Virus record (IMG/VR): IMGVR_UViG_3300037847_002657
Coordinates: 1 to 20,150 of that record
DNA length: 20,150 nt
DNA from: a virus
Direction: 5' to 3' (one strand)
The position numbers were made by a program, and so were the translations under genes. This document shows positions 1 through 12,923 of the stretch, in pieces (the first letter of the stretch is position 1; the number at the start of each line of letters is the position of its first letter). The notes under the pieces were generated by a model. The model made no database searches, was not told where the DNA came from, and saw only the letters and a list, made by a program, of their open reading frames with translations.

Positions 1-408
1 CCAGCCGCTGCTAGCAATGTCCTGAGATTCTATTTTGTAACGGACTTGCAAGTAGCTGGTACCTGCAGGTGTTGATGAACTTGAGCTAGATGTACGGAAA
101 AACTTTCTGAAACCTTTGTCGTAAGGAGCCTCGCTTGGTCCTAATGATTGCTGGGAATCAGTAAACGTTCCGGTGCCTAGATTTACGTCTCTGCCGAATC
201 GATCGACACAGTTGTATCCATTGCTGGTACCAGATGCGCCGCGTTGGGCTACCTGACAGGCTCCGTTCACCACAAGATTTCTGCTGCTTAACGCACCGGC
301 AGTCGGCATCTGTAAGCCGTCAACGGTAACGTGACCAGAGTTATCTAGCTGGATGCCACCGTTAGCGGTTGAGATGTGCTCTAGTTTATTCGCTTTGATT
401 GTGCTCAT
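1..408 (-). CDS. Fibre-like virion protein, N-terminal part (cut by window edge)
   Basis: This reading frame is open from an ATG at 408 to the left edge, giving 136 residues without a stop; the C-terminus is outside the window. Its ATG overlaps the stop of the preceding fibre gene as ATGA, which suggests translational coupling. The protein starts MSTIKANKLEHISTANGG, and at residues 47-70 has the stretch NLVVNGACQVAQRG followed by GYNCVDRF. As I recall, this signature (NG-x-x-QVAQRG ... VDRF) is common in fibre or appendage proteins of marine phages, often ahead of a carbohydrate-binding-like beta domain. A Ser-rich linker lies near residues 109-115. The role as a receptor-binding or tail appendage protein is inferred from this signature and from its position after three fibre genes. 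I see no catalytic motif in the visible part. Confidence 0.7.
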   Translation of the reverse strand, partial: MSTIKANKLEHISTANGGIQLDNSGHVTVDGLQMPTAGALSSRNLVVNGACQVAQRGASGTSNGYNCVDRFGRDVNLGTGTFTDSQQSLGPSEAPYDKGFRKFFRTSSSSSSTPAGTSYLQVRYKIESQDIASSGW

Positions 409-421
409 TCTGCTGCCTCCA
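402..421. repeat. 20-bp direct repeat, left copy, at fibre gene junction
   Basis: These 20 bases are identical to 1673-1692. The repeat covers the ATGA overlap between two fibre genes and the codons for the final LEAAE residues upstream of it. The bases beyond it (coding ARVTA) are similar but not identical. Confidence 0.9.
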
Positions 422-1679
422 ATGCTGTTACACGCGCCAGCAAGTCGGCGTTCTGTGTTTCTAGGGTTTCAATCTTGGCACTAGCCTCTTGCAATGCTTT
501 TACAAGAACAGGAATAAATGCTCCTGGTGCAACTGTTTTGTATTGAGGATCGTCACCAGTAAAATCAGATGGCAGCGGAGCAATTCCAACTGCTTCAGGA
601 AACGCTTGTTCAACTTCTTGAGCGATAAACCCAAGTTGATTTGTGCCTTCGTTATATGTTTGATCTTGCCTCCAGTCAAAACGAACAGGTCGCAACTGGT
701 TAATTACTGCAAGTCCGTCTTCTGAGTCTCTGATGTTTTCTTTTAACCTTTCATCAGAAGCAGACTGTACTGTTGTATTTGTAGCATAAATATTGCCATC
801 GCCATTAACCTTGAATCGCATTGTAGTTCCCGCACCACCAAGCGCTCCATGATTAGTTTCGACCAAGATCAAATTATCGCCTGAGCTATTTCTGCCTGTA
901 GTGACAAGCAAATGATTTGATGAGCCGGTATTAGTTGAGTTTGCGTTTAATGCCCAACCACTACCGGTTACGGCTCTAAATTGGTGACCAATACTGGCAT
1001 CCCAGGTAGCAGTTGATCCAGCTATCAACCGCCCAGAGCTATCGATTCTCATCCGCTCTTGGACGGTTTCATTGGGAGAGCCGTTATTTGGTTTTGTGTG
1101 AAATGTAAGACTTCCACCCCAATTAGAAACAGTTTCTGCGCTTATCCCACCAAGAGACGCATTTTCTGAGGTGTTAGCAGAGTTATGTACTCTGAACCTG
1201 AGCATATCTACATCATTGCCACCGGCCGCTGAAGTTAGTTTTGTCAATGAAACATCACCATCTTTCACTTGCACCAAGTAGCCGTCTTGGTTAGTTGTTG
1301 TGTTCACCAACAACCGTCCATCGGGATCGATGCGGGCGGCTTCAGTAGCACCACCGCTTTGAAAAATAATGCTATTGTCTTCTGGACTTGAATTTAGGTA
1401 GAGATTGTTGTCTGTGTCTATATGAACAACTCGGCGTGCCGTACCACCGGTATTTTCAATAAGCAAACCTGTGTTATTGGCGAGTTCAATGCCAGAGCTG
1501 GTTTCGACCATGCTGGAGTATTCCAGCTCGCCAGCAGTACCAGCGTTTTTAACAAATTGATTAGCAGATCCCGCCGAGGTAGGCAGGGTCAGCGTAATAT
1601 CGCTACCAGTCGGGCTGGTATCGGCGGGAGCCTGTAGATTGACGCTCCCGTCTGTACTTCCTTTTAGTTTAATGCTCAT
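405..1679 (-). CDS. Tail fibre protein with C-terminal S74 intramolecular chaperone (424 aa)
   Basis: This is a putative receptor-binding fibre. The N-terminal half has beta-rich repeats of the form RID-x-x-GRLL (residues about 116-124 and 210-218), typical of trimeric fibre shafts. The C-terminal 117 residues are a peptidase S74 / endosialidase intramolecular chaperone domain. Its SDERLKENI motif starts at Ser308, the expected autocleavage point before Asp, and the following Lys is the expected dyad partner. The later GFIAQEVEQAFPEAV segment is also typical of S74. A heptad helix ends in LLARVTALEAAE. In this family the chaperone drives trimerisation and is then cut off; that it cuts here is inference. 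The ATG at 1679 overlaps the stop of the upstream gene (ATGA), and its own stop overlaps the next ATG the same way. The last residues match those of the upstream fibre gene, and a 20-bp repeat marks both ends. Confidence 0.88.
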   Translation of the reverse strand: MSIKLKGSTDGSVNLQAPADTSPTGSDITLTLPTSAGSANQFVKNAGTAGELEYSSMVETSSGIELANNTGLLIENTGGTARRVVHIDTDNNLYLNSSPEDNSIIFQSGGATEAARIDPDGRLLVNTTTNQDGYLVQVKDGDVSLTKLTSAAGGNDVDMLRFRVHNSANTSENASLGGISAETVSNWGGSLTFHTKPNNGSPNETVQERMRIDSSGRLIAGSTATWDASIGHQFRAVTGSGWALNANSTNTGSSNHLLVTTGRNSSGDNLILVETNHGALGGAGTTMRFKVNGDGNIYATNTTVQSASDERLKENIRDSEDGLAVINQLRPVRFDWRQDQTYNEGTNQLGFIAQEVEQAFPEAVGIAPLPSDFTGDDPQYKTVAPGAFIPVLVKALQEASAKIETLETQNADLLARVTALEAAE

Positions 1680-1692
1680 TCTGCTGCCTCCA
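1673..1692. repeat. 20-bp direct repeat, right copy, at fibre gene junction
   Basis: This is an exact copy of 402-421. Together the two copies bracket the 424-residue S74 fibre gene. A crossover between them would remove that gene and leave a correct ATGA junction to the next one. Confidence 0.9.
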
Positions 1693-3031
1693 GTGCGGTA
1701 ACTCGGGCTAGCAGATCATTGATCTGAGCCTGTTGTGCTGTGTTCTGCGTTTCAAGTGATTCAATCCGAGTCTGTGCTTCTTGCAATGCTTTGATTGCCA
1801 TCCACATCATCTGCTGTTCTTTAACACCCTTGCGTATTACTTCAGCAACAGCAGGCGTGACAACGTTGCCATCTTCATCAAGAACTGCATCTTGAGCTGA
1901 TTGCTTGACCCAGTCAGTCAGAACTTCTGGGCAGTGCTCTTCAACTTGCTGTGCAATAACGCCATAACGGAGATCGTCGTTATCATCGTCTTCGTTGTAA
2001 TGAAATTTTTTAATATCCCAGCTTTTTACCTTGTCCCATTTAGTTTCAAGGTTGACAATGTTTTTCTTTTCGCGTTGATCGGAAAGGTTAGAGCTATTGT
2101 TATGATAGTAGTGTAGACCACCATTGCTGGAAACTCTAAATCTTGTCCCGTTAGAATCGTTTCCTTGTAGATATGAGTTACCAGAGTTATTAGGGGAATT
2201 CCTGTAGTTAATAAGAATACCTTCGTGTTCGCTAGCGGCTCCAGAATTATGGGTCACGATCATGGTCCAGCCATTGTCATCGCTGGTGAACTCATGCCTT
2301 GCGCTGTCCAAATCGGCTACGCCATTCGTGCTATGTGTAATTCTTGTCCCAGCTTTGACATATCCTCTTTTGTTAATTCGGAACCGCTCGGTCGGGCTGC
2401 TTGAAGAATTAGGCGTTGTTAAAATTGATAATCTGCCTGGATGATCATTATTGCCAGCGCCGCCGTCACAAGCACCTTTAATCTCTGCAAAGTCATTACC
2501 AGCGTCATCTGTGAAAGTGATAATACCTAAGCTCGCGCCAGTACTCATCTCTGAGGCGGATTGACCACGCGCCAATCCCAATACGGCTGGACCACTGGCG
2601 TTAGTGGTATTGCCCTGAATAAAAACAGGAGCTTCAGAGCCTTCACCAGTAGTTGGCGATCCAGTTTTGTTCACCAACAATCGCCCTGTTGAGTCAAAGC
2701 GTGCATGTTCCGTGTCATTAGTGCCAAACAACAATGCATGATTGCTAGCAGTTTTTATAATCCCACCGTCACTATGCGTCCGAACAACAAAGGTATGCGA
2801 ATTATTATCAGTAAGCTTTAGTCCATGACCAGTTGAGCCATCTAGGTGAAGAGTATCGTCAGGCGCTGAGGTGCCAATGCCAAAACGCCCCGCACTATCA
2901 ACCGTTGCCCTGGTGCTGCCACCAGTAACCAGCTTTACCTCATTACTCCCACACTGCAAACCCGTATCTGTGTCAGCGCCGGTAAACGCTGGGTTTGCTT
3001 CTGTATTAGTACCGTCAATTTTTACAGTCAT
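1676..3031 (-). CDS. Tail fibre protein with C-terminal S74 intramolecular chaperone (451 aa)
   Basis: This is a second fibre with an S74 domain. The frame can also be opened at a TTG at 3037 that overlaps the stop of the previous gene. I prefer the ATG at 3031 (MTVKIDGTNTEANPAFTG), two bases after that stop; neither has a clear Shine-Dalgarno. The N-terminal part has repeats such as ATVDSAGRFGIGTSAPD and ARFDSTGRLLVN, which suggest a beta-structured trimeric shaft. The S74 domain starts near Ser317 with SDQREKKNI, the autocleavage motif, continues with YGVIAQQVEEHCPEVL, and contains a longer insertion (VLDEDGNVVTPAVAEV) than the neighbouring gene. The C-terminal coiled coil ends in NDLLARVTALEAAE, almost identical to the next gene. 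The two proteins differ over most of their N-terminal halves, which suggests exchange of receptor-binding modules around a kept chaperone. Confidence 0.88.
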   Translation of the reverse strand: MTVKIDGTNTEANPAFTGADTDTGLQCGSNEVKLVTGGSTRATVDSAGRFGIGTSAPDDTLHLDGSTGHGLKLTDNNSHTFVVRTHSDGGIIKTASNHALLFGTNDTEHARFDSTGRLLVNKTGSPTTGEGSEAPVFIQGNTTNASGPAVLGLARGQSASEMSTGASLGIITFTDDAGNDFAEIKGACDGGAGNNDHPGRLSILTTPNSSSSPTERFRINKRGYVKAGTRITHSTNGVADLDSARHEFTSDDNGWTMIVTHNSGAASEHEGILINYRNSPNNSGNSYLQGNDSNGTRFRVSSNGGLHYYHNNSSNLSDQREKKNIVNLETKWDKVKSWDIKKFHYNEDDDNDDLRYGVIAQQVEEHCPEVLTDWVKQSAQDAVLDEDGNVVTPAVAEVIRKGVKEQQMMWMAIKALQEAQTRIESLETQNTAQQAQINDLLARVTALEAAE

Positions 3032-3033
3032 AA

Positions 3034-4737
3034 TCAAACAATAGTCCAGGTAGATCCAGAGGGTACGGTGACAACGGCTCCAGAATTAACCGTCAGCGGG
3101 CCGGCACTAATGACGTTTTTACCAGTACCAATGGTGTAAGAAGTAGTAATTGTGTTGTCATGTTCGACAGCCCATTGGTCGTTTCCACCACCAGAAGCAC
3201 CGCCTGCAAACCCCCAGCTGAGGTTGCCGTTGAGATCAGAGATGATTGCCTTGCCAGCAACGTCTGGCATCCCTGTGGGGAGAGTGAGGGTGTAATTAAC
3301 ATCAGTACCCCCAGATTGATCCAACACAGTTGGACCCGCAATAGCGATATAGTTTTGAGTACCAGACCCTCCTAAAGCAGGAGGAGCTTCAAAAAAACGA
3401 AGTTCTTCTGCAGGGTTGAAAGTAACGTCACCAGTGAGTGTTCCACCACTAATTGGAAGAGCGCTCAGGCTTGAGGCAGTCAGCGTGACTGCACCCGTTT
3501 GACCATTAACAGAGTCGACTTTCGTTTCAAGCTCGGTCTCAAGCTCCTGGAGAGCAGCTTTAACACTGATGCTATCGCTGATAGTTGAACCGGTGAACGC
3601 ACCAAGGTGTGTACTGTTCAGTGGAAGACCTGATAGCGTTGCTGCATCGACTGTATTTTGGCGAGTGATGTCAACATAAGGTGGGTATCCATAGCGATCA
3701 TCAGGATCGTTTGCATTGTAATTAACAAAGTTCCATTTCTGAGCACTACTGCTGTAGAGAATGTCTACAAAGATACCTGAATCACCAACAAATCCAGTAG
3801 GGACACCCTGGACAGTGCTTGTTGTTTGGATGCTTGTAGAGTCAACTACACGGACAGCATCGTTGTTGGAAGGGTTTGACGGGATTGCTGCAACATTGGC
3901 AATTTCTACAAACAAATAGGCAGCCTGGACCGCAGCTGATGCAGCGTTTGCCGTAGTAACAGCGTTCGAAGCATTTGTCGATGCTGTGTTTGCTGTACTT
4001 AGTGCAGTACTTGCATCAGTTGCAGCAGTATTAGAAGTACTTAAAGCTGTAGAAGCGTTAGCAGAGGCACTATTTGCTGTAGTGACAGCATTCGAAGCAT
4101 TTGTAGACGCTGTATTTGCTGTGGTAGATGCAGCGTTAGCGGTAGAAACAGCACTACTGGCGTCAGTAGATGCCTGAGTAGCTGTTGCAGAGGCTGTATT
4201 TGCAGTAGAGACAGCAGTAGCTGCGTCTGTAGCCGCCTGGGAGGCATCTGCGGCTGCAGAAGCGGCGTCTGCAGCAGCTTGAGTGGCGGAAGTTTGTGCA
4301 GAGGTGACAGCAGCCTGCGCTGTATTAGCAGCAGAAGTAGCACTAGCTGCTGCAGTTTGGGCTGCAGTGGTTGCGATCTGTGCTGCATCAGCTGCAGTCT
4401 CAGCTCGCTCAGAGATCGCGTCAGCTTCCTGGGTAACAAAGAGAATCTGTTCGAAGTTATCGTTTAGATCCTGTGCGCGAATAGCAGAACCTGGGAAGAA
4501 GGTAGCTTTTGGAGAATCAACGGTCGTATTGCGGTAGATACGAATTGCAGCACCAGACGCAGGTGCTGTAGTGAACTCAATAGTAGTACTGTTGGCCAGG
4601 GCGTATGCAGTTGTAGCGACAGTGACAGCGTCAATAGAGACTTCAATGTCAGTCGCTTCGATATATTCAAATGTAAATGAAAAGAGGACGGTCGAACCGT
4701 CCCCTGTATAAGTATTCTCAATAATTGGGGCCGTCAT
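3034..4737 (-). CDS. T7 gp17-like tail fibre protein (567 aa)
   Basis: This is the main tail fibre, joined to the tail by its N-terminus. Residues 1-105 fit the T7 tail fibre N-terminal family: the opening ENTYTGDGSTVLFSFTFEY, the IRIYRNT strand, and a conserved AQDLNDNFEQ segment near residue 90. Residues 105-272 are a low-complexity Ala/Ser/Thr/Asn shaft with a clear seven-residue period, probably a trimeric coiled coil. A globular region follows (about 275-350, with FVGDSGIFVDILY), then VNGQTGAVTLT and an ISGGTLTGDVTF segment as in many fibre distal domains. The C-terminus GPLTVNSGAVVTVPSGSTWTIV is a motif I associate with the ends of cyanophage fibres. It has no S74 domain, unlike the next two genes. 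It begins 2 bases after the gp16-like stop. The N-terminal attachment domain makes the assignment firm; the receptor is unknown. Confidence 0.9.
   Translation of the reverse strand: MTAPIIENTYTGDGSTVLFSFTFEYIEATDIEVSIDAVTVATTAYALANSTTIEFTTAPASGAAIRIYRNTTVDSPKATFFPGSAIRAQDLNDNFEQILFVTQEADAISERAETAADAAQIATTAAQTAAASATSAANTAQAAVTSAQTSATQAAADAASAAADASQAATDAATAVSTANTASATATQASTDASSAVSTANAASTTANTASTNASNAVTTANSASANASTALSTSNTAATDASTALSTANTASTNASNAVTTANAASAAVQAAYLFVEIANVAAIPSNPSNNDAVRVVDSTSIQTTSTVQGVPTGFVGDSGIFVDILYSSSAQKWNFVNYNANDPDDRYGYPPYVDITRQNTVDAATLSGLPLNSTHLGAFTGSTISDSISVKAALQELETELETKVDSVNGQTGAVTLTASSLSALPISGGTLTGDVTFNPAEELRFFEAPPALGGSGTQNYIAIAGPTVLDQSGGTDVNYTLTLPTGMPDVAGKAIISDLNGNLSWGFAGGASGGGNDQWAVEHDNTITTSYTIGTGKNVISAGPLTVNSGAVVTVPSGSTWTIV
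3922..4425 (-). repeat. Degenerate heptad-coding repeat in the fibre shaft
   Basis: Within the gp17-like gene this stretch codes for residues 105-272, almost only Ala, Ser, Thr, Asn, Asp and Gln. From residue 175 the heptads can be written one under another (AVSTANT, ASATATQ, ASTDASS, AVSTANA, ASTTANT, ASTNASN, and so on), with near-copies two or three heptads apart. At DNA level 3953-3997 and 4079-4123 are near-identical 45-base copies, exactly 126 bases (six heptads) apart. This suggests growth by slippage or unequal recombination, with the heptad phase kept. Confidence 0.8.
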
Positions 4738-4739
4738 AC

Positions 4740-7700
4740 TCAGTTTCCGAAGTTAATTAACTCGTCATATCGACCTTTCCCTTGCAACTGTTTTCTGTAG
4801 CGGGCGGCTTGTAGGCGTCCACCAAAGTCATCAGTCTCTTCACGGGGTAAGGAGGCGTATTGGCTTGCGGCACGTAGGCGTGATTGTGAGATCATCCTGG
4901 TGATTGATTTATACCAGAGCTGCTCAGAGCGCGGTGCGGTGATTCCCTTATCGACAGTCTTCTTCCACTCTTCTAGTTGACGTTGGAAATCACGGCTTCG
5001 CATGAGTTTCTCAAGGCGGCCATGCAGATTGCCCTTGGCCACCAGGCGGTTGATACCAGCGCGGTCCTCAGCACTCAACTCAAGGCCTTTATAGGTGTCA
5101 CCAAAGTCAGTGCGGGTGTCGATTTGAAGCTCACCAAGCTTGTCAATCACATAGTCACTGTTGTCCTGGGAGATGTTGAACGGTAGAAACTGGTTAGCGA
5201 AGTGGAAAAGGATGCCAGGATCCTTCGTATCGATCTTGCGCTGACCAGTAAAAATATCAACAGCGGACTCAGCGCCACTCAGGTAGTTACCACCGGGCCA
5301 GCTGCGGGTTAGTGAGGCCTGGAGTTCGTTGTTAAACTCATAGACATCAGGAGCCAGAGCCTTAGCCATCTGACGACGAAGGCCAGAGAACGGGATAAAA
5401 GTGTTGAGAGCGTTAAGACCTTCGCGGGCAAAGTTGACGTTACCCACGGTTTGAGGGTTTAGATAGCCAATAGCGGTCTGCAAGCCTTTCATGTAAGAAC
5501 GCTCGAAAACTGCTTTAGCAAAGGTGTATTGCAGCTGAGAAACCAACCTGTCATACTCACCCGCTTTTAGATATGGAGCAGCGTGCTGAAGATCAGCAGC
5601 AGCCGCAAACATCACGTTGAGGGGTTCGATAGAGGCATAGGAAACCCACTTGTCACCGATTTTGATTGACTGAGGTTGGTTACTTTGAAGCCAGATTTTG
5701 CGAAGCTCAGGGTCAGCAGGACCGTTGCCAGTAAGGTTGCCAGCTGCAGCAAAACCGAAACCAGTAGCCAGTACGCCATAGCCGATGGCTACACGTCCTT
5801 TGAGCATTGCCTTGGCCGCCTCATCGGTACCGCTACGGATGTCCTGTGCTTCTTTAAGAAAGCGGTTAATGCCAGGCGTATAGGTGCCGGCATAGACCAT
5901 TAGGTTATGAGGAGTACGGACAAAGGGGACGGCGTATTTTGTCAGCGGGTTGCTATCCAGAAGGTCCGAAACTTGCTTTGCTACCCCTTCTAAGTCTTGT
6001 TGGAAGGTTTGTTCTTTAGCGATACGCAGAAGACCGTCATCCTTAACTTCACCATTGACAATTTTGTCTTGTGCAATCTTTGCGTACTTATCAGGGTCAA
6101 ACTTGAGAGTGCCTGTTTCAGACAAGGTTTCCATCATTGTCTGACGCTTAAGCTCGATACGAGCGTTCAAGATTTTGAAAAAGTCATCACCTGCAGCCAA
6201 TGCACGAGTAGGTGCATTCAAAACTGCATTGGTGTGCAACATATCGAGAAAGTTGGCAGCACGCTTTTCAGAGTCAGTTGTTGCACCTTGCTTTAGCAGC
6301 TCAAGGCCCCGGGCGACTTCGCTTTCATGCACCTCGAACTTTGCGCCACCTGCGGGAGTACCTGTCGACCATGCCTTGCCACCTGCAGACAGTGCCTCGG
6401 AGAATGAGTCAACAACAGCAGATAGAGAAGAAATCGATGCTTTAGCAGCATTGATATCACCACTCATTGCTTGACCGATAGCCATGGCCGTAGGGCGCAG
6501 AACCATCGTTGACAAGTTGCCAATCGCGTTACGGGCGTGAGTGATGGGACCCGAAAGCATCGAGTTGTACATCACTTTGATCATGGCCTTACCACCAAGC
6601 TCACGGAACAGCATCTGAACAGTCATCTGCTTAAGCGGATCACCGTCAGCCATGGCGAGGCCCTGGGCGAGGTCTTGGAAGTCCTTAATGGACTGAGGGT
6701 CACCCTCCTCGAGCTTGCCCCTCATGTTCTCGAAAGTTTTGTCAATCTCACCGAGCTCACGACCAAGCTTGGCTCGATCAATTTTTATGGGGCCAGCCTG
6801 GAATGATTGCAGACCAGAGGCGTAGTGGACAGAGCTCTCCTTATACATACGGGAGAGGCCGTGGAGTCGGTCAATGATTCCGTTTGCCTGGGCAAGTGGT
6901 AGCTCACGGCCAGAGGCAACTAGATCGAGCGAGTTACCAGCTAGGTCATTTAGCTGCATACTCAGATCGGTGATAATCGTCCGAGCTGCAAAAATACCTT
7001 CACGCGACAAAAAGGTTTCATCACCAATGCTGCCCTTCATGTCGTCAAAGGTTTTTAGAGCTTCCTCAGCAGAAAGCTCCTCAGCACCTAGAAAACGTCG
7101 AATGACATTAAAGGACTTGGCTATTGTCTCTTCGTTGCTTTGACCAAGTCGGCGGGAAATCTCATCCACGTCGATGCGTGAGTTGAGTGCGCTTAAAGTT
7201 CTCCTAAGACCATCAGCTTCTTCAACTGACGAGGCTACTGCTGTCATTTTCTTGACAGCTGCATCCGTGAAGAGTGACTTAGTAGATCGTCCGTTGGTTG
7301 CTCCTTCGAAGCCTTCGACAGCTTTCTGGCTTACAGCTACGTCTTCAACAGTGTTGGACGTAATTCGCGCAGCTTTTTCATCTACTTCAAAGCGGGGGGC
7401 ACGATCAGGAGAGCCTCCATAGACAACATCCTGGGTTTCACGAAGGATGCGCGTCTGGGCTGGTGTCATATCAAGGCCAGCATCTACAAGAGTTAGCTGC
7501 CGAGGTCCTGTTGCGGTGAGGTCGAGTTCAGTTTGAACTGGGTCAATAGAGGTATCGACTTCACGGGGGCTTGTAATACGGTCAGCCACCTTCGGGTCAA
7601 AGATGACAATCTCCTCTAGTGAGTTGTCACTGTCATACAGGCCTTTAACTCGTACACCGTCAAAATCCTTAGCAAAAACCTTTGATAGAGCATCGCCTGG

Positions 7701-9068
7701 CTGCTCAAAAGCATCGATGTCTACATACTTTTTGAGCTCTTCGAGGGAGAGTGTTTTGAGCTTGATATCACCTGCACGGCCGACAAGGACTTCTGGACCG
7801 TATTTTTTAGCGAGATCTGATGATGGTGAGAAGTACACACCGTCTCCAAGAGGATGAGAGCCTCCACTAGAAACCCTAAAGCCCCCAACTTCGATCTTTC
7901 CTTTGCTGTAAGTTCCGTGATAGATGCCGTCAGGGATCTCTTCAGACTCCCTGATAGCCCTTTTCATGGACTCCAATTCGGTCTGTACTTCTTTAACGTG
8001 ACGATCGAGAACTTCTTCGGCGTGAGCTTTACGTGCGGTAAGGCTGGTATTGCGCTTTTTGAAAGCCTTATCAGCACGGCGCATAGTGCGAATAGCACCG
8101 AGGACTTCGCCTAGTGCATCTACACCCAAACCAAGAACACCACCTTCAGCCATTGCCAGGAGCTTTGCTTCCCAGGGGTTGCTGCCCTCATCGACGCTCA
8201 TAGCGGCGACGAGAGGACCTAGGACGGGAGAGTCATGCTCAATGCCAAACAACTCGGCAGCCTGCTGAACCAAGGTGCCATCTTCTGAATCAGTGACGAT
8301 CAAGTCAGCCAGCATGGAGCGTGGCTGTGCAGCTGCAAGACGTTGCGCCCGGGCAGCAAAAGTACGGCCAGCGGGACCCGAGGCTCCGAGGCCGGGGATC
8401 TTTTTAAGGCCAAACATTGCAGTGTGCAGCTTGAAGCCACCACGTACTAACTTGCCAATCGCAGTGCGGTTTTCACTGACAGTAAAATTCCAATTTGCAC
8501 GCTCATATTCATCTCCATAGATGTCGTCTTCTTCCGAGGCAATGCCCAGCCAGGTTTTGGCGGTATCCCCGATAAGTTCGCCAGTATTTAGAGTCTGATT
8601 GATTGCATCAAGACGACCACCAAGAACAGCACGGACACCTTCAGCAAGGATATCTTCTGATTGGTTGATCTCGCTCTGCCGTTCTTGGAACCTTCTAGTG
8701 CCCTCTTCACGAACATCAGCACGGTCAGAAGCAATCTGTTCGCGTGTGCGTTGGTCACCTTGAAAGGTGTTGTCAATAAAGTCACGGACACCAACAGCGA
8801 TATCCTCCATAAAGCCACCTTCGCGGGCACGCTGGCGTTCAGCCTCCCGCTCAGGATCATCGAGGTATTCTTGGCGTTCAGCTGCTAATGCGTTTTCTCT
8901 TTGTTGTTCAGCTTCTTCTTGGGCTTGCGCCTCCTGCATAGCAAGAGGCAGAGACAGTTGATAGTCAGATTGTTGTTTTGCAAGTGATGCAGCCGCAGCC
9001 GCTTCATCTATTTCAGGGTTGGACAATTCGAGGTCGTCAAGACCTTCAAAACTTGGAGTCTGAGTCAT
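4740..9068 (-). CDS. gp16-like internal virion protein with ADP-ribosyltransferase-like domain (1442 aa)
   Basis: This is the largest protein and sits just before the fibre, the position of T7 gp16, an inner core protein ejected to build the conduit across the envelope. Residues 20-145 are highly charged and probably helical. Residues 380-498 look like an ADP-ribosyltransferase fold: IYHGT with His384, GDGVYFSPSSDLAKKYG with Tyr412, and LEEIVIFDP with Glu485/Glu486, the order and spacing of H-Y-E type transferases such as those inside phage polyvalent proteins. Residues 820-900 and 1040-1075 (KYAVPFVRTPHNLMVYAG) are a long helical region recalling other large podoviral ejection proteins. A hydrophobic segment lies at about 1093-1111. 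I see no N-terminal lytic transglycosylase, which T7 gp16 has. T7 gp16 is 1318 residues. The start ATG at 9068 follows the gp15-like stop by 28 bases. Virion role is confident; enzyme activity is inferred from motifs. Confidence 0.85.
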   Translation of the reverse strand: MTQTPSFEGLDDLELSNPEIDEAAAAASLAKQQSDYQLSLPLAMQEAQAQEEAEQQRENALAAERQEYLDDPEREAERQRAREGGFMEDIAVGVRDFIDNTFQGDQRTREQIASDRADVREEGTRRFQERQSEINQSEDILAEGVRAVLGGRLDAINQTLNTGELIGDTAKTWLGIASEEDDIYGDEYERANWNFTVSENRTAIGKLVRGGFKLHTAMFGLKKIPGLGASGPAGRTFAARAQRLAAAQPRSMLADLIVTDSEDGTLVQQAAELFGIEHDSPVLGPLVAAMSVDEGSNPWEAKLLAMAEGGVLGLGVDALGEVLGAIRTMRRADKAFKKRNTSLTARKAHAEEVLDRHVKEVQTELESMKRAIRESEEIPDGIYHGTYSKGKIEVGGFRVSSGGSHPLGDGVYFSPSSDLAKKYGPEVLVGRAGDIKLKTLSLEELKKYVDIDAFEQPGDALSKVFAKDFDGVRVKGLYDSDNSLEEIVIFDPKVADRITSPREVDTSIDPVQTELDLTATGPRQLTLVDAGLDMTPAQTRILRETQDVVYGGSPDRAPRFEVDEKAARITSNTVEDVAVSQKAVEGFEGATNGRSTKSLFTDAAVKKMTAVASSVEEADGLRRTLSALNSRIDVDEISRRLGQSNEETIAKSFNVIRRFLGAEELSAEEALKTFDDMKGSIGDETFLSREGIFAARTIITDLSMQLNDLAGNSLDLVASGRELPLAQANGIIDRLHGLSRMYKESSVHYASGLQSFQAGPIKIDRAKLGRELGEIDKTFENMRGKLEEGDPQSIKDFQDLAQGLAMADGDPLKQMTVQMLFRELGGKAMIKVMYNSMLSGPITHARNAIGNLSTMVLRPTAMAIGQAMSGDINAAKASISSLSAVVDSFSEALSAGGKAWSTGTPAGGAKFEVHESEVARGLELLKQGATTDSEKRAANFLDMLHTNAVLNAPTRALAAGDDFFKILNARIELKRQTMMETLSETGTLKFDPDKYAKIAQDKIVNGEVKDDGLLRIAKEQTFQQDLEGVAKQVSDLLDSNPLTKYAVPFVRTPHNLMVYAGTYTPGINRFLKEAQDIRSGTDEAAKAMLKGRVAIGYGVLATGFGFAAAGNLTGNGPADPELRKIWLQSNQPQSIKIGDKWVSYASIEPLNVMFAAAADLQHAAPYLKAGEYDRLVSQLQYTFAKAVFERSYMKGLQTAIGYLNPQTVGNVNFAREGLNALNTFIPFSGLRRQMAKALAPDVYEFNNELQASLTRSWPGGNYLSGAESAVDIFTGQRKIDTKDPGILFHFANQFLPFNISQDNSDYVIDKLGELQIDTRTDFGDTYKGLELSAEDRAGINRLVAKGNLHGRLEKLMRSRDFQRQLEEWKKTVDKGITAPRSEQLWYKSITRMISQSRLRAASQYASLPREETDDFGGRLQAARYRKQLQGKGRYDELINFGN

Positions 9069-9096: not shown

Positions 9097-11814
9097 TTAA
9101 GAGAACATTTTTGCAATGCGGACGAGCTGAGCTTTCGTAGCATTGCCGGTTTCAAGCAACCGGGCGTGTCTTACGATTGCTTTCTCGTTCATTGATGCGT
9201 AGGTTTTGGGACCTACCCATTGACCGATGCCACTGGTGGCAGTACGGAGTAGATAAAGAGCTAAAGCATCTTGCACTTGAGGCACGAACCGAGTATTCGG
9301 ATCGATGCCTGATTTCTCGACAAGACTGCGAAGAGTTGAGCCGATAAACTGATAACGACCAACGGCGTGTAAGCGGCCTTGGTCACGCCACTGAGTATTC
9401 GTCATAGAGCCATCATCAGACTGAAGATCCATGATTTCCTGAATAGTCAAAGAGGTCAGCTCACGGCCACCATGCTGAGACATCTGACTAAAGCGTCCTG
9501 AGTACATACCCAGCTCTTTGCCAGTTGAATGGCCATCATCGGCGCCATATTGGTTCACAGCGTCATAACCGCCAACGCCGTCGGACTCATAAGTTCCGAT
9601 AACATCTAGGGCCGCCTGTTCGAGTTTCTCAGGCGTAGGGAGTTCAGCCAGACTGGGGATCCCTTTGTATTGCTGTTCGCGTACATAGCTCTTCAGGTCT
9701 ACGTTGATACCGTATGCCTGGCCCTGTTGTTCCAGTAGAACGCGGGGGCTCATGTTTCCAATAGCACCGGCAATAACTTTGACGCGGTCGGGGAGGGCTG
9801 CCTCGCCACCTTGTCGGTAAAGGTCAGCGTACTGCTCAAGCTCTTTACGGTTAAAAATGATGTCACTAACAGGATTAAAGTTATTAGTTTGGTCATCATC
9901 AGTATTATTGAAGTTTGCTTGCTGAAAGTCAAACGTGCTCAATCCTCGGAAGTCACGAATACGTCGACCTGTCTTTTCGCTTGTTCGATAAACCATCTTT
10001 GCCAAGTTTACCGATGGAGTCTCGCTAAACGTGTATTGATATTTGACACCATTCGCCTCGGCACCTTTTTGCCCGTTCTCGATTTCAGTACTAATAGCTT
10101 GCTGCCGTGATTCAATAAACTGGGAGATCTGACCAGACGTTGCTTCGGGATTGAGGCGGATGAAGTTCATAGCCTCTCGAGTAATCCTGCGCTGGATATC
10201 ACCTTCGATAGCAGCGTTCTCATCCCTAGAGCCACCCAGGAGGTTCTCATTTGAACCGAAGCGGGCTTCAGTAGCAGCCTTAGCCAGACGTTTGATGTCA
10301 GATTCGTAGGGCTGAATTGCCTTCTTAAGTTCAGCGGCCTCATTGCCGACAAGCTTGCTGAGCTCGCTGTGTTGAGTAGTGTTGATGATCCCAGACTCAA
10401 AAGCATCACGGACGTCGTCCTCATCGAGTTGACCTTGCTGCGCCTGGTCCATGAGGAGGTCGAAGGCAACATCAGAGTCAGAGGTACCGCCACTGAGGAT
10501 GTCCTTCTCAAAAGCGAATGCGTCCTTACCACCTAGTTCACGAGCTAAGCCGATGTACTTCTCTTCGACTGCACGGATCTTGTCGGGATCAGCCCCTGCC
10601 TCGATCAACTCGCGGTAGCGGGCTTCCTTGTAACCGTTAAGGGTCTCAGTTTTAACGCGGTCCCTACGGACGTTGTCGTTGTGAATGCGGTCTAAGAATT
10701 TGTCCTTAGAATCACGGATCAATTGTCCGGTGGCACCTTTACCTAAGGTGTGACCTGTAGCAAGAGTGTGCTTTTCAAGGGCATCGTAGTCAGCCATGCT
10801 GCCATTTTCTTCGATAGCAGTAAGTACACTTTGCAAAGCACCTTTAGATGCTTGTCCCTTAGTACGGCCACCTACGCCGACAAGTCCTGCATAAGCTTCT
10901 TCAAAAAGGGTTACGGGGCTTTCGCCAGCAAGGACTCCATCAATCACAGCACCATTGACGTTGTCTAAGGCTTCCTGCTCTTGGGCAGCGCGGATGTTTT
11001 GTAGACGCTCACGGATAATTGCATCAGAAGCCCTAGCTGTTGCAGGAATCAAATTGCGTTGAACCACAGCTCGGTTCATGAATTCGATTCCAGCAGACGT
11101 AGCGAACTCACGTTTTGCGATAGCATCGGCAGCACGAAGATCTGCTTCTGTCTCTGCTGTTCTAGGAGTGAAGGTTGTCCCGTCTGGACGGACGATGACA
11201 ACATCGCTATTCATGAACTCGTTCAAGAAGACGCCAATGCTTTGGGAAGCTTGGTATCCGTTTTGGCGCTGAACGTTTACAGTAATGCCTTGCTTTTGTG
11301 CAGGAAGGTGCAGCTCTTGCTGTAAGCCCTTATCCCCTTCTGCAGTTTCGACAGTTGCTTGACCAATGGCAATTTGCTGCTCACTGAACAAAGCTGCACT
11401 ATCCGCAGCCTCTTGAGCTTGAGGTGAGATTTCACCGAGCGAATAACCATCTAGAGGGCTGTTGTAGTATGCGTCTAGTTCACGTTGATATAACTCAGCT
11501 TCATTCTGCTCTTCAAAACGTAATTTTGCGGCTTTTACAGCAGTTTGAGAAAGAGCGAGAAGACCCTTAACAGTGGTCTGTTGAGCTTTTAAATTTGCTC
11601 GTTCAACTGCTTGCTGAGCATTAAGAACAGCAGATTCTAGAGCTTGATCCCGTTGATTGATTTGAATCTCACGGTTTACATTCGCTACTTGTTGTTTTGT
11701 ACGTTGAGCTTCCTGGTTGGAAGTGTCAATAGCAGCAATAGGATTAAAGCCACGGCTCTGGAGAGAACTTTCGTAGTTATCACCATATTGCTCAGAGGTA
11801 TAAATACGAGCCAT
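9097..11814 (-). CDS. gp15-like internal virion protein with C-terminal lysozyme/transglycosylase-like domain (905 aa)
   Basis: By position between gp14-like and gp16-like genes, and by its long helical make-up, this is the equivalent of T7 gp15, a core protein ejected into the periplasm (T7 gp15 is 747 residues). Residues 30-130 are Gln/Ala/Glu-rich and helical. From about residue 735 there is a separate globular domain of the lysozyme-like superfamily: VIGTYESDGVGGYDAVNQYG with candidate catalytic Glu743, then AVGRYQFIGSTLRSL (819-822 = GRYQ), a motif also seen in phage muramidases and transglycosylases of the lambda R type. This would open the murein locally during DNA entry. In T7 that activity is at the N-terminus of gp16, so the hydrolase has a different carrier here. 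The ATG at 11814 is 3 bases after the gp14-like stop. Structural role is firm; the exact hydrolase family is less certain. Confidence 0.87.
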   Translation of the reverse strand: MARIYTSEQYGDNYESSLQSRGFNPIAAIDTSNQEAQRTKQQVANVNREIQINQRDQALESAVLNAQQAVERANLKAQQTTVKGLLALSQTAVKAAKLRFEEQNEAELYQRELDAYYNSPLDGYSLGEISPQAQEAADSAALFSEQQIAIGQATVETAEGDKGLQQELHLPAQKQGITVNVQRQNGYQASQSIGVFLNEFMNSDVVIVRPDGTTFTPRTAETEADLRAADAIAKREFATSAGIEFMNRAVVQRNLIPATARASDAIIRERLQNIRAAQEQEALDNVNGAVIDGVLAGESPVTLFEEAYAGLVGVGGRTKGQASKGALQSVLTAIEENGSMADYDALEKHTLATGHTLGKGATGQLIRDSKDKFLDRIHNDNVRRDRVKTETLNGYKEARYRELIEAGADPDKIRAVEEKYIGLARELGGKDAFAFEKDILSGGTSDSDVAFDLLMDQAQQGQLDEDDVRDAFESGIINTTQHSELSKLVGNEAAELKKAIQPYESDIKRLAKAATEARFGSNENLLGGSRDENAAIEGDIQRRITREAMNFIRLNPEATSGQISQFIESRQQAISTEIENGQKGAEANGVKYQYTFSETPSVNLAKMVYRTSEKTGRRIRDFRGLSTFDFQQANFNNTDDDQTNNFNPVSDIIFNRKELEQYADLYRQGGEAALPDRVKVIAGAIGNMSPRVLLEQQGQAYGINVDLKSYVREQQYKGIPSLAELPTPEKLEQAALDVIGTYESDGVGGYDAVNQYGADDGHSTGKELGMYSGRFSQMSQHGGRELTSLTIQEIMDLQSDDGSMTNTQWRDQGRLHAVGRYQFIGSTLRSLVEKSGIDPNTRFVPQVQDALALYLLRTATSGIGQWVGPKTYASMNEKAIVRHARLLETGNATKAQLVRIAKMFS

Positions 11815-11817
11815 TTC

Positions 11818-12483
11818 TTATGCGAAAGAGGGGATTTCTAAGCCTGCAAGTCCATAGGGATCCAGAATCGGAGCTTGCGTGGGTGCTGAGGTCCGGCTAA
11901 AGGCCTGATTTGCAGCACTTTGTGCTTGATCAAATGCAATGTCTTGTGCGATAGCGCTTTGAAGATCTGCACTTTCGACAGAAGCATTCTGCTGAGCTTG
12001 TGCAAACCCTGCCTGGCGGTCAGCGTCAAGAGACAGCAAACCTACAGACTGACCAGTTGCTCCAGAAGCAAGGATTTTACCTTGTGTGCCAATTGACTTA
12101 GCAAGAATTGCCTGTGATTTGAATGAAGCTTTTACCCGTGCATCTTCTCTTTTTGCCTGCTCTTGTACATAAGTTTTATTGACAGCTTTATTAAAATTGT
12201 CGAGATTTTTGTAGTAGGCAAGTGTAGAAGCTTGCTCCTCTCTCACTCGGCCTTGCTGTTCCGTCAAAGCCCGTTGATTAGCAAGTCGAGCACTCTCAGC
12301 CCTTTGGCGTGTTTGCATCTCCATTTGAGTGCGGGCCTGGGCGGCCTGCATCTGGGCTGCTTGCTGACCTTGAGCAATGCTAGCGACAGTGCTAACTGCG
12401 CTAATCGCGAGTCCGATATTTGTGGCTAAGGCTGCTGATTTGGCCGCCACAGTTGCAGTGGCGCCAGCGGTTACTACACACAT
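11818..12483 (-). CDS. gp14-like internal core protein (221 aa)
   Basis: This small internal virion protein is equivalent to T7 gp14 (196 residues), the outermost core protein, which is ejected first and is thought to form a pore in the outer membrane. The N-terminal 40 residues are Ala/Val/Ile-rich and hydrophobic (residues 10-37, with NIGLAISAVSTVASIA). They are followed by a long Gln/Ala/Arg helix (about 38-90) and a second Ala/Gln-rich part (residues 135-200). This hydrophobic-then-helical layout and the gene position fit gp14. It overlaps the upstream gp13-like gene by 10 bases, with the ATG at 12483 inside the last codons of that gene, and is followed 3 bases later by the gp15-like gene. 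The assignment rests mainly on order and composition. Confidence 0.82.
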   Translation of the reverse strand: MCVVTAGATATVAAKSAALATNIGLAISAVSTVASIAQGQQAAQMQAAQARTQMEMQTRQRAESARLANQRALTEQQGRVREEQASTLAYYKNLDNFNKAVNKTYVQEQAKREDARVKASFKSQAILAKSIGTQGKILASGATGQSVGLLSLDADRQAGFAQAQQNASVESADLQSAIAQDIAFDQAQSAANQAFSRTSAPTQAPILDPYGLAGLEIPSFA

Positions 12484-12923
12484 AGTTTTACTATTTCTAA
12501 GTAGGGCAGGTGTTGCGGACCACTAGGAACAGACCTGATAGCCTTAAAACCGAGCATCCGCAGTAGTTTGTGGTGATACAGGTTCCTGGCGTCTGCAAGG
12601 TTCCAGAGGAGGCGATAGTTGCGCTGTTCTTGTTTAAGCCAACGTTTTGCATGGCGTACAAATGTGTGTGGGTTTAGTTCGACAGCAGGCGTACAAATCA
12701 TCCAGATTTGACCCTTGATATCGGACTCCTTAACAATCCCAGCAACGCCTGCGATCTCGCCTTCAGTATTAAAGAAGGAGACCGCAACGTCGCTTATGAG
12801 AACACTGAAAACGAGGGCTATAGGCGAGTGGCCCAAACCCTCGATTTCTTGGCGATCTTCTGGTCGAAGATTTTTGGCAACTTGCACCGCGTCCTGCACA
12901 GTGGCAGTGCGGATGTGATTCAT
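12474..12923 (-). CDS. gp13-like virion-associated protein, GNAT-like (149 aa)
   Basis: It lies between tail tubular protein B and the gp14-like gene, where T7 has gene 13 (138 residues, needed for virion maturation). The beginning MNHIRTATVQDAVQVAKNLR is the usual first strand and helix of a GNAT acetyltransferase-like fold. Later there are EGEIAGVAGIV (residues about 54-64), GQIWMICTP (about 71-79), and at the end RLLWNLADARNLYHHKLLRMLGFKAI, which resembles the T7 gp13 C-terminal half (LWN ... FLKTIGA). I do not see the Q/R-x-x-G-x-G/A acetyl-CoA loop of active GNAT enzymes, so an active acetyltransferase is doubtful. The start ATG at 12923 overlaps the stop of the upstream gene by one base (TAATG), which implies coupling. 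Confidence 0.75.
   Translation of the reverse strand: MNHIRTATVQDAVQVAKNLRPEDRQEIEGLGHSPIALVFSVLISDVAVSFFNTEGEIAGVAGIVKESDIKGQIWMICTPAVELNPHTFVRHAKRWLKQEQRNYRLLWNLADARNLYHHKLLRMLGFKAIRSVPSGPQHLPYLEIVKLCV

What the first reader, a model, noticed from the sequence alone, without database searches (positions are those of the whole stretch)
7575..7931. ADP-ribosyltransferase-like domain embedded in an ejected gp16-type core protein
Residues 380-498 of the 1442-aa protein carry, in order, IYHGT (His384), GDGVYFSPSSDLAKKYG (Tyr412) and LEEIVIFDP (Glu486). This is the order and spacing of the H-Y-E class of ADP-ribosyltransferases, including those found in phage polyvalent proteins. The gp16-type protein is expected to be ejected into the host with or before the DNA. 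T4 Alt, a head-packaged ADP-ribosyltransferase, modifies host RNA polymerase in this way, but I know of no such domain in T7 gp16 itself. This would be a way for a T7-like phage to modify host proteins before any phage gene is expressed. The domain is a discrete insert between an N-terminal helical part and the conserved ejection body.
Basis: partly seen in the sequence, partly recalled or inferred. Interest (0 to 1): 0.8.

Follow-up and report, generated by a model that had tools for sequence, protein, structure and literature searches.

The report
ADP-ribosyltransferase module in cyanophage ejection protein
A large core protein that a T7-like cyanobacterial virus probably shoots into its host carries, as a swappable insert, a PARP-like enzyme domain with its catalytic residues intact, so the virus may chemically modify host molecules before any viral gene is switched on.

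Summary
The minus-strand gene 4740-9068 encodes a 1442-aa protein at the gp16 position of a T7-like (cyanopodovirus-type) late region. Residues 380-498 carry His384, Tyr412 and Glu486 in H-Y-E ADP-ribosyltransferase (ART) order. Pfam ART-PolyVal matches only the first half, below its curated cut-off, but five other gp16-type proteins (phages P60 and S-CBP42, three IMG/VR lineages) carry the same domain in the same slot. A profile built without the window finds it at E=3e-9; the best of 2000 shuffles scores 7 bits against 40. H, Y and E are invariant at about 27% identity. The profile's solved-structure matches are overwhelmingly PARPs and exotoxin-A-type ARTs, and one homologue passes Pfam's PARP cut-off. 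The closest relatives (40-52% identical) lack the insert. In P60 and S-CBP42 the domain is 76% identical while the ejection body is 37%, so it seems to move as a module. AlphaFold models were too poor to test the fold. Catalysis, target and cytoplasmic delivery are inferred. ARTs in ejected phage proteins were already described, including an N4-like podovirus: this is a new carrier of a known kind. No sequence homology to T7 gp16 was detected.

The parts
4740..9068 (-). gp16-position internal virion (ejection) protein, 1442 aa
   Evidence: ORF; PHROG 6651 internal virion protein over residues 99-1436, E=4e-145; tblastn to cyanopodovirus internal virion proteins
7575..7931 (-). ART-like domain, residues 380-498
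   Evidence: Pfam ART-PolyVal E=2e-5, below cut-off; profile of four other phages' domains hits it at E=3e-9, 40.3 bits vs 7.4 best shuffle
7485..7970 (-). whole variable slot (about residues 367-528); nearest relatives resume alignment on either side and have no ART here
   Evidence: blastp and alignment with L121, L010, L001 (S-TIP28), L122
7917..7919 (-). codon of His384 (IYHGT), first catalytic-motif residue
   Evidence: invariant in alignment A6
7833..7835 (-). codon of Tyr412 (GDGVYF), second motif residue
   Evidence: invariant in A6
7611..7613 (-). codon of Glu486 (LEEIVIFDP), third motif residue
   Evidence: invariant in A6
7596..7598 (-). codon of Asp491 (FDP), alternative third residue of the H-Y-D reading
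   Evidence: invariant in A6 and in the K-Y-E relatives
7968..8819 (-). N-terminal helical part (residues 84-367) shared with ART-less relatives
   Evidence: blastp to L121, L010, L001, L122
4743..7487 (-). conserved ejection body (residues 528-1442)
   Evidence: 41-52% identity to L121 and S-TIP28; alignment A1
9097..11814 (-). gp15-position protein, 905 aa, with endolysin-like C-terminal part
   Evidence: phrog_19560 virion structural protein; phrog_1200 endolysin over residues 712-839
11818..12483 (-). gp14-position internal virion protein
   Evidence: phrog_15746 internal virion protein, E=1.2e-57
12474..12923 (-). gp13-position protein
   Evidence: phrog_308 internal virion protein, E=3.3e-37; weak Pfam Phage_T7_Gp13
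3034..4737 (-). tail fibre (gp17 position), directly downstream
   Evidence: phrog_32829 tail fiber, E=3.6e-94

Best explanation
The segment is an H-Y-E ADP-ribosyltransferase domain of the PARP/ART-PolyVal kind, inserted as a movable cassette between the N-terminal part and the ejection body of the gp16-position protein of a T7-like cyanopodovirus. Proposed working: the protein is packed in the head core and ejected with or before the DNA; the ART domain refolds on the host side, binds host NAD+ (His384 and Tyr412 holding it, Glu486 activating) and transfers ADP-ribose to a host macromolecule, most likely a protein, helping early takeover or blocking defence before phage genes are expressed. 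Shown here by sequence: domain identity, conserved triad, same slot in several phages, patchy presence, purifying selection in relatives. Inferred: fold, activity, target, and delivery to the cytoplasm.
For: Pfam ART-PolyVal match. Leave-one-out profile E=3e-9 and shuffle control. H, Y and E among 18 invariant columns in five gp16-type ARTs at 26-30% identity to the window. Profile versus PDB: all matches with E<=0.2 are PARP-type or exotoxin-A-type ARTs (similar). Homologue L123, same slot, passes the Pfam PARP cut-off even as a whole protein (27.4 bits vs 26.7). Domain dN/dS 0.16-0.24 among P60, S-CBP42 and L100. P60/S-CBP42 domain 76% identical vs body 37%, highest in a sliding comparison. 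At least five gains or losses on the gp16 tree. Gene order as in T7. T7 ejection proteins enter the cell, with the C-terminal part of gp16 modelled in the cytoplasm (PMC8954989).
Against: Both structure models are of low confidence (pLDDT 42 and 44) and gave no ART match. The window's domain is short (about 119 aa; relatives about 150-170) and the most divergent of its set; the Pfam match is partial and below the curated cut-off. In T7 the N-terminal 228 residues of gp16 stay in the periplasm, where NAD+ is expected to be scarce; which side residues 380-498 reach is unknown. A related domain in MPP-C cyanopodoviruses keeps Tyr and Glu but has Lys for His and is still conserved, so the fold may persist without this chemistry. 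No virion or infection data were available.
Confidence: 0.66

Rival explanations
1. It is an ART-fold domain that hydrolyses NAD+ or modifies nucleic acid (host RNA, tRNA, DNA or NAD-capped RNA) rather than host protein, for example to upset NAD-based defence.
For: H-Y-[EDQ] ARTs act on protein or nucleic acid, and viral ARTs act in NAD-centred conflicts (PMC9503650). Nothing in the sequence identifies the acceptor.
Against: The closest solved relatives by profile are mono-ADP-ribosylating PARPs and exotoxin-A-type enzymes that modify protein (their chemistry from general knowledge).
Confidence: 0.2
2. It is an ART-fold relic: catalytically dead in this phage and kept as a spacer or scaffold part of the ejection protein.
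For: The window domain is short and divergent; ART-less relatives at 40-52% identity do without it; an H-to-K version is stably conserved in MPP-C phages.
Against: H, Y and E are all kept although most other columns changed; low dN/dS in relatives; a mere spacer would not need the catalytic residues.
Confidence: 0.17
3. The domain works in the producing cell or inside the virion (for example modifying capsid or host proteins late), not after ejection.
For: The gene is in the late structural block, so the enzyme is made late in infection in a cell with NAD+.
Against: Placement inside an ejected core protein rather than as a free gene; head-packaged T4 Alt acts after ejection (PMC9503650).
Confidence: 0.12
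4. The motifs are a chance resemblance in an unrelated ejection-protein segment.
For: Partial, sub-threshold Pfam match; no fold match with low-confidence models.
Against: Leave-one-out profile and shuffle controls, conserved triad in the same slot of other proteins, above-cut-off PARP match of a homologue.
Confidence: 0.03

Closest known systems
ART-PolyVal domains of phage polyvalent proteins (Pfam PF18760; prototype: Roseovarius Plymouth podovirus 1 vRNAP, PMC5512222)
   Same: ART domain embedded in a large, head-packaged protein predicted to be injected; His and Tyr motifs of the same type; podovirus ejection protein as carrier
   Different: Carrier is a T7-like gp16-position protein rather than N4-like vRNAP; third residue looks PARP-like Glu486 with Asp491 also present (paper: H-Y-D); Pfam score below cut-off; single enzyme domain recognised rather than many
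PARP/PART catalytic domain (Pfam PF00644)
   Same: YHGT, GxGVYF and E-x-[IV]-x-[FY]-D motifs in order; homologue L123 above the curated cut-off; profile finds PARP10/12/14/15 structures
   Different: The window domain itself gives no PF00644 match; about 119 aa against a 199-position model
T4 Alt (Alt/VIP2 clade)
   Same: Head-packaged ART ejected with the genome; proposed early action on the host
   Different: R-S-E active-site class and separate protein; parallel of function only (PMC5512222)
T7 gp16 (internal virion protein D)
   Same: Gene order, size class and predicted role as ejected core protein
   Different: No sequence similarity detected by profile comparison; T7 gp16 has an N-terminal transglycosylase, whereas here an endolysin-like part is on the gp15-position protein
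gp16-position proteins of Synechococcus phages P60 and S-CBP42
   Same: Same protein family, same slot, same H-Y-E ART domain
   Different: Their domains have extra residues between the Tyr and Glu motifs; deposited only as 'internal virion protein'

Membership tests
H-Y-E ADP-ribosyltransferase (PARP/ART-PolyVal group) | Sequence-profile homology to the group | tested here: met
   ART-PolyVal E=2e-5 though below the curated cut-off; family profile hits PARP and exotoxin-A-type structures; homologue L123 above PARP cut-off; leave-one-out E=3e-9
H-Y-E ADP-ribosyltransferase (PARP/ART-PolyVal group) | Catalytic His, Tyr and Glu/Asp in order, conserved among homologues | tested here: met
   His384, Tyr412, Glu486 (and Asp491) invariant in A6
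H-Y-E ADP-ribosyltransferase (PARP/ART-PolyVal group) | Split beta-sheet NAD-binding fold | tested here: inconclusive
   AlphaFold models pLDDT 42 and 44; strand/helix order fits but no reliable fold match
H-Y-E ADP-ribosyltransferase (PARP/ART-PolyVal group) | NAD-dependent ADP-ribosyl transfer | not testable with these tools
   needs an assay
Pfam PF18760 ART-PolyVal | Score at or above curated gathering cut-off (31.2 bits) | tested here: not met
   25.8 bits on the slice, 17 on the whole protein
Polyvalent protein (PMC5512222) | Large virion-ejected protein combining two or more effector domains | tested here: inconclusive
   one enzyme domain recognised; the rest is ejection body
T7-type gp16 ejection protein | Position between gp15-type and tail-fibre genes in a T7-like late block | tested here: met
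T7-type gp16 ejection protein | Detectable sequence homology to T7 gp16 | tested here: not met
   hhalign probability 0.6%; no T7 record among the listed tblastn hits; no gp16 structure found by profile
Cyanopodovirus internal virion protein (PHROG 6651) | Near full-length profile match | tested here: met
   E=4e-145 over residues 99-1436
Ejected virion protein | Present in virion and transferred into the cell | not testable with these tools
   inferred from T7 and P-SSP7 literature (PMC8954989)
T4 Alt/VIP2 ART clade | R-S-E active site | tested here: not met
   H-Y-E motifs instead

The most novel reading that the evidence does not exclude
Cyanopodovirus gp16-type ejection proteins are delivery vehicles with an exchangeable cargo slot: an active, PARP-like mono-ADP-ribosyltransferase can be plugged in or lost between closely related phages and reaches the cyanobacterial cytoplasm before the genome is transcribed, so that host proteins (for example RNA polymerase or a defence protein) are modified at time zero. 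Other phages fill the same slot with other, unidentified domains.
Probability: 0.35. Interest if true: 0.72.

Novelty: new variant of a known kind. Interest (0 to 1): 0.52.

Why it matters
If active, T7-like cyanophages would have a pre-transcriptional weapon comparable in role to T4 Alt, in phages of ecologically major hosts. Cultured members (P60, S-CBP42) carry the same domain, so activity and delivery can be tested directly. It also marks the gp16 slot as a place where phages swap cargo domains, which gives a way to find other effectors and bears on whether ejected core proteins carry enzymes into the cytoplasm.

Tried and rejected
Structure prediction of the domain twice (4 and 11 sequences): mean pLDDT 42.1 and 44.1; Foldseek and VIA-align gave only unreliable hits (TCTP, KH domains) and no ART; treated as no evidence either way. 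Single-sequence search of solved structures found nothing. Direct IMG/VR scans with the window protein or its domain alone found no relative; alignment-based scans worked. A bacterial and archaeal genome scan found no relative, so the source of the domain is unknown. Homology of the family to T7 gp16: not detected. Search for enzyme domains in the slot of SS120-1-type and other long gp16-type proteins: no convincing Pfam match. ParB-like and zincin-like segments that I thought I saw by eye in the P-SCSP1u protein gave no Pfam support and are not claimed.
Full report
What is there. The gene runs on the minus strand from 9068 to 4740 and encodes 1442 aa. It matches PHROG 6651, internal virion protein, over residues 99-1436 at E=4e-145. 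Reading the minus strand, the window holds portal, scaffold, capsid, two tail proteins, a gp13-type protein, gp14-, gp15- and gp16-position internal virion proteins and a tail fibre, which is the T7 order (T7 record). The nearest named relative is Synechococcus phage S-TIP28, about 40% identical. The record is a 20,150-base virus contig, so host and rest of the genome are unknown; a cyanobacterial host is inferred from the relatives. A profile comparison with T7 gp16 itself found nothing, so 'gp16' is a statement of position and role.

The domain. Pfam ART-PolyVal matches residues 381-425 at E=2e-5 in the isolated slice but below the curated cut-off. Aligning cyanopodovirus gp16-type proteins showed the same kind of domain in the same slot of P60 and S-CBP42, and scans of IMG/VR added L092, L100/L097 and L123. 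In the alignment of the window, L092, L100, P60 and S-CBP42, 18 columns are invariant; they include H, Y and E, at 26-30% identity to the window; L123 keeps all three. A profile built without the window finds the window protein at E=3e-9 among all ORFs fetched, and scores it 40.3 bits against at most 7.4 for 2000 shuffles. The family profile's matches to solved structures are led by PARP10, PARP15 and PARP14, then exotoxin-A-type ARTs, at E=0.004-0.05; with 11 sequences the top hits are again PARPs. Each such E-value is modest, but the consistency is telling. L123 exceeds Pfam's PARP cut-off both as slice (30.1 bits) and as whole protein (27.4; cut-off 26.7). The motif E-x-[IV]-x-[FY]-D has the form I recall around the catalytic Glu of PARP1; that comparison is from memory. 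The 2017 polyvalent-protein paper gives H-Y-D for its ARTs, and Asp491 of the FDP motif is also invariant here, so the third residue is Glu486 or Asp491.

Modularity. The four closest gp16-type relatives (L121 52%, L010 49%, S-TIP28 and L122 41% over the body) align on both sides of the slot and lack the domain. On a quick tree of 76 gp16 bodies, presence of the H-Y-E domain needs at least five changes (L010 and L121, which are cut at a contig end, are not in this tree). P60 and S-CBP42 are 76% identical in the domain but 37% in the body, and the domain is the most similar stretch in a sliding comparison. Conservation, exchange, or both could produce this; exchange is my preferred reading. Pairwise dN/dS in the domain is 0.16-0.24, with synonymous sites close to saturation. 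Other long gp16-type proteins have unidentified inserts in the same slot.

Related cases. P-SCSP1u and its kin (MPP-C cyanopodoviruses) have a 2563-aa protein after the tail and other late genes; for a relative, P-SCSP1a, two genes were suggested as internal virion proteins from size and place (PMC9860041). The P-SCSP1u protein contains a segment that matches the ART profile (profile comparison E=9e-15) but with Lys for His in all nine relatives aligned, Tyr and Glu kept. A different ART-PolyVal type (YHGSPY...GYGLYFAE, Asn at the Glu place) sits near the N-terminus of gp16-like proteins of other phages (L155, L156, L193, L162); L156 passes the ART-PolyVal cut-off. So ejection proteins of this kind have probably acquired ART domains more than once.

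Fold test. The predicted strands coincide with the YHGT, GVYF, DGVRV and EEIVIFD motifs, as an ART would require, but fold searches gave nothing reliable. This test remains open.

Mechanism. In T7, gp14, gp15 and gp16 are ejected; gp16 residues 1-228 line the periplasmic tunnel and the C-terminal part is modelled in the cytoplasm (PMC8954989). In P-SSP7 the core disappears on attachment and a tube appears in the envelope (same source). The window's ART lies at residues 380-498, just after the most hydrophobic stretch (311-329), which would fit a position near or past the inner membrane, but topology is unknown. The most likely action is ADP-ribosylation of a host protein soon after ejection. 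The gp15-position protein has the endolysin-like part, so the N-terminal part of this gp16 need not be the wall-cutting part.

Known or new. Head-packaged, injected ARTs are established (T4 Alt) and predicted widely in polyvalent proteins, including the vRNAP of an N4-like podovirus (PMC5512222); a 2022 survey reports ARTs in only about 3% of podoviruses and discusses head packaging at length (PMC9503650). My literature searches of the open library found no report of an ART inside a T7-like gp16-type protein; P60 and S-CBP42 entries say only 'internal virion protein'. Absence in that library is not proof. I file it as a new variant of a known kind.

Noticed in passing
L095:7971-8519 (P-SCSP1u) and L101-L120: MPP-C cyanopodoviruses carry an ART-like segment in a giant late protein with Lys in place of the catalytic His, conserved across all relatives aligned; may be an inactive or altered ART.
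   Followed up: partly
L155, L156, L162, L193, L173 (N-terminal parts of gp16-like ORFs): A second, different ART-PolyVal type (YHGSPY..GYGLYFAE) near the N-terminus of gp16-like proteins of other podovirus lineages, with Asn at the Glu position in those aligned.
   Followed up: partly
window 9097-11814: gp15-position protein has an endolysin-like C-terminal part (phrog_1200), so the wall-cutting activity seems to sit on gp15 rather than on gp16 as in T7.
   Followed up: partly
L002, L013, L018, L024, L100 (slot region of the gp16-type proteins): Large inserts of unknown kind in or near the same slot (proteins of 1700-2000 aa); no convincing Pfam match in those scanned; possible other cargo domains.
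   Followed up: partly
window 405-1679 and 1676-3037: Two consecutive tail-fibre-like genes after the gp17-type fibre, with similar C-terminal parts resembling intramolecular chaperone domains (by eye).
   Followed up: no
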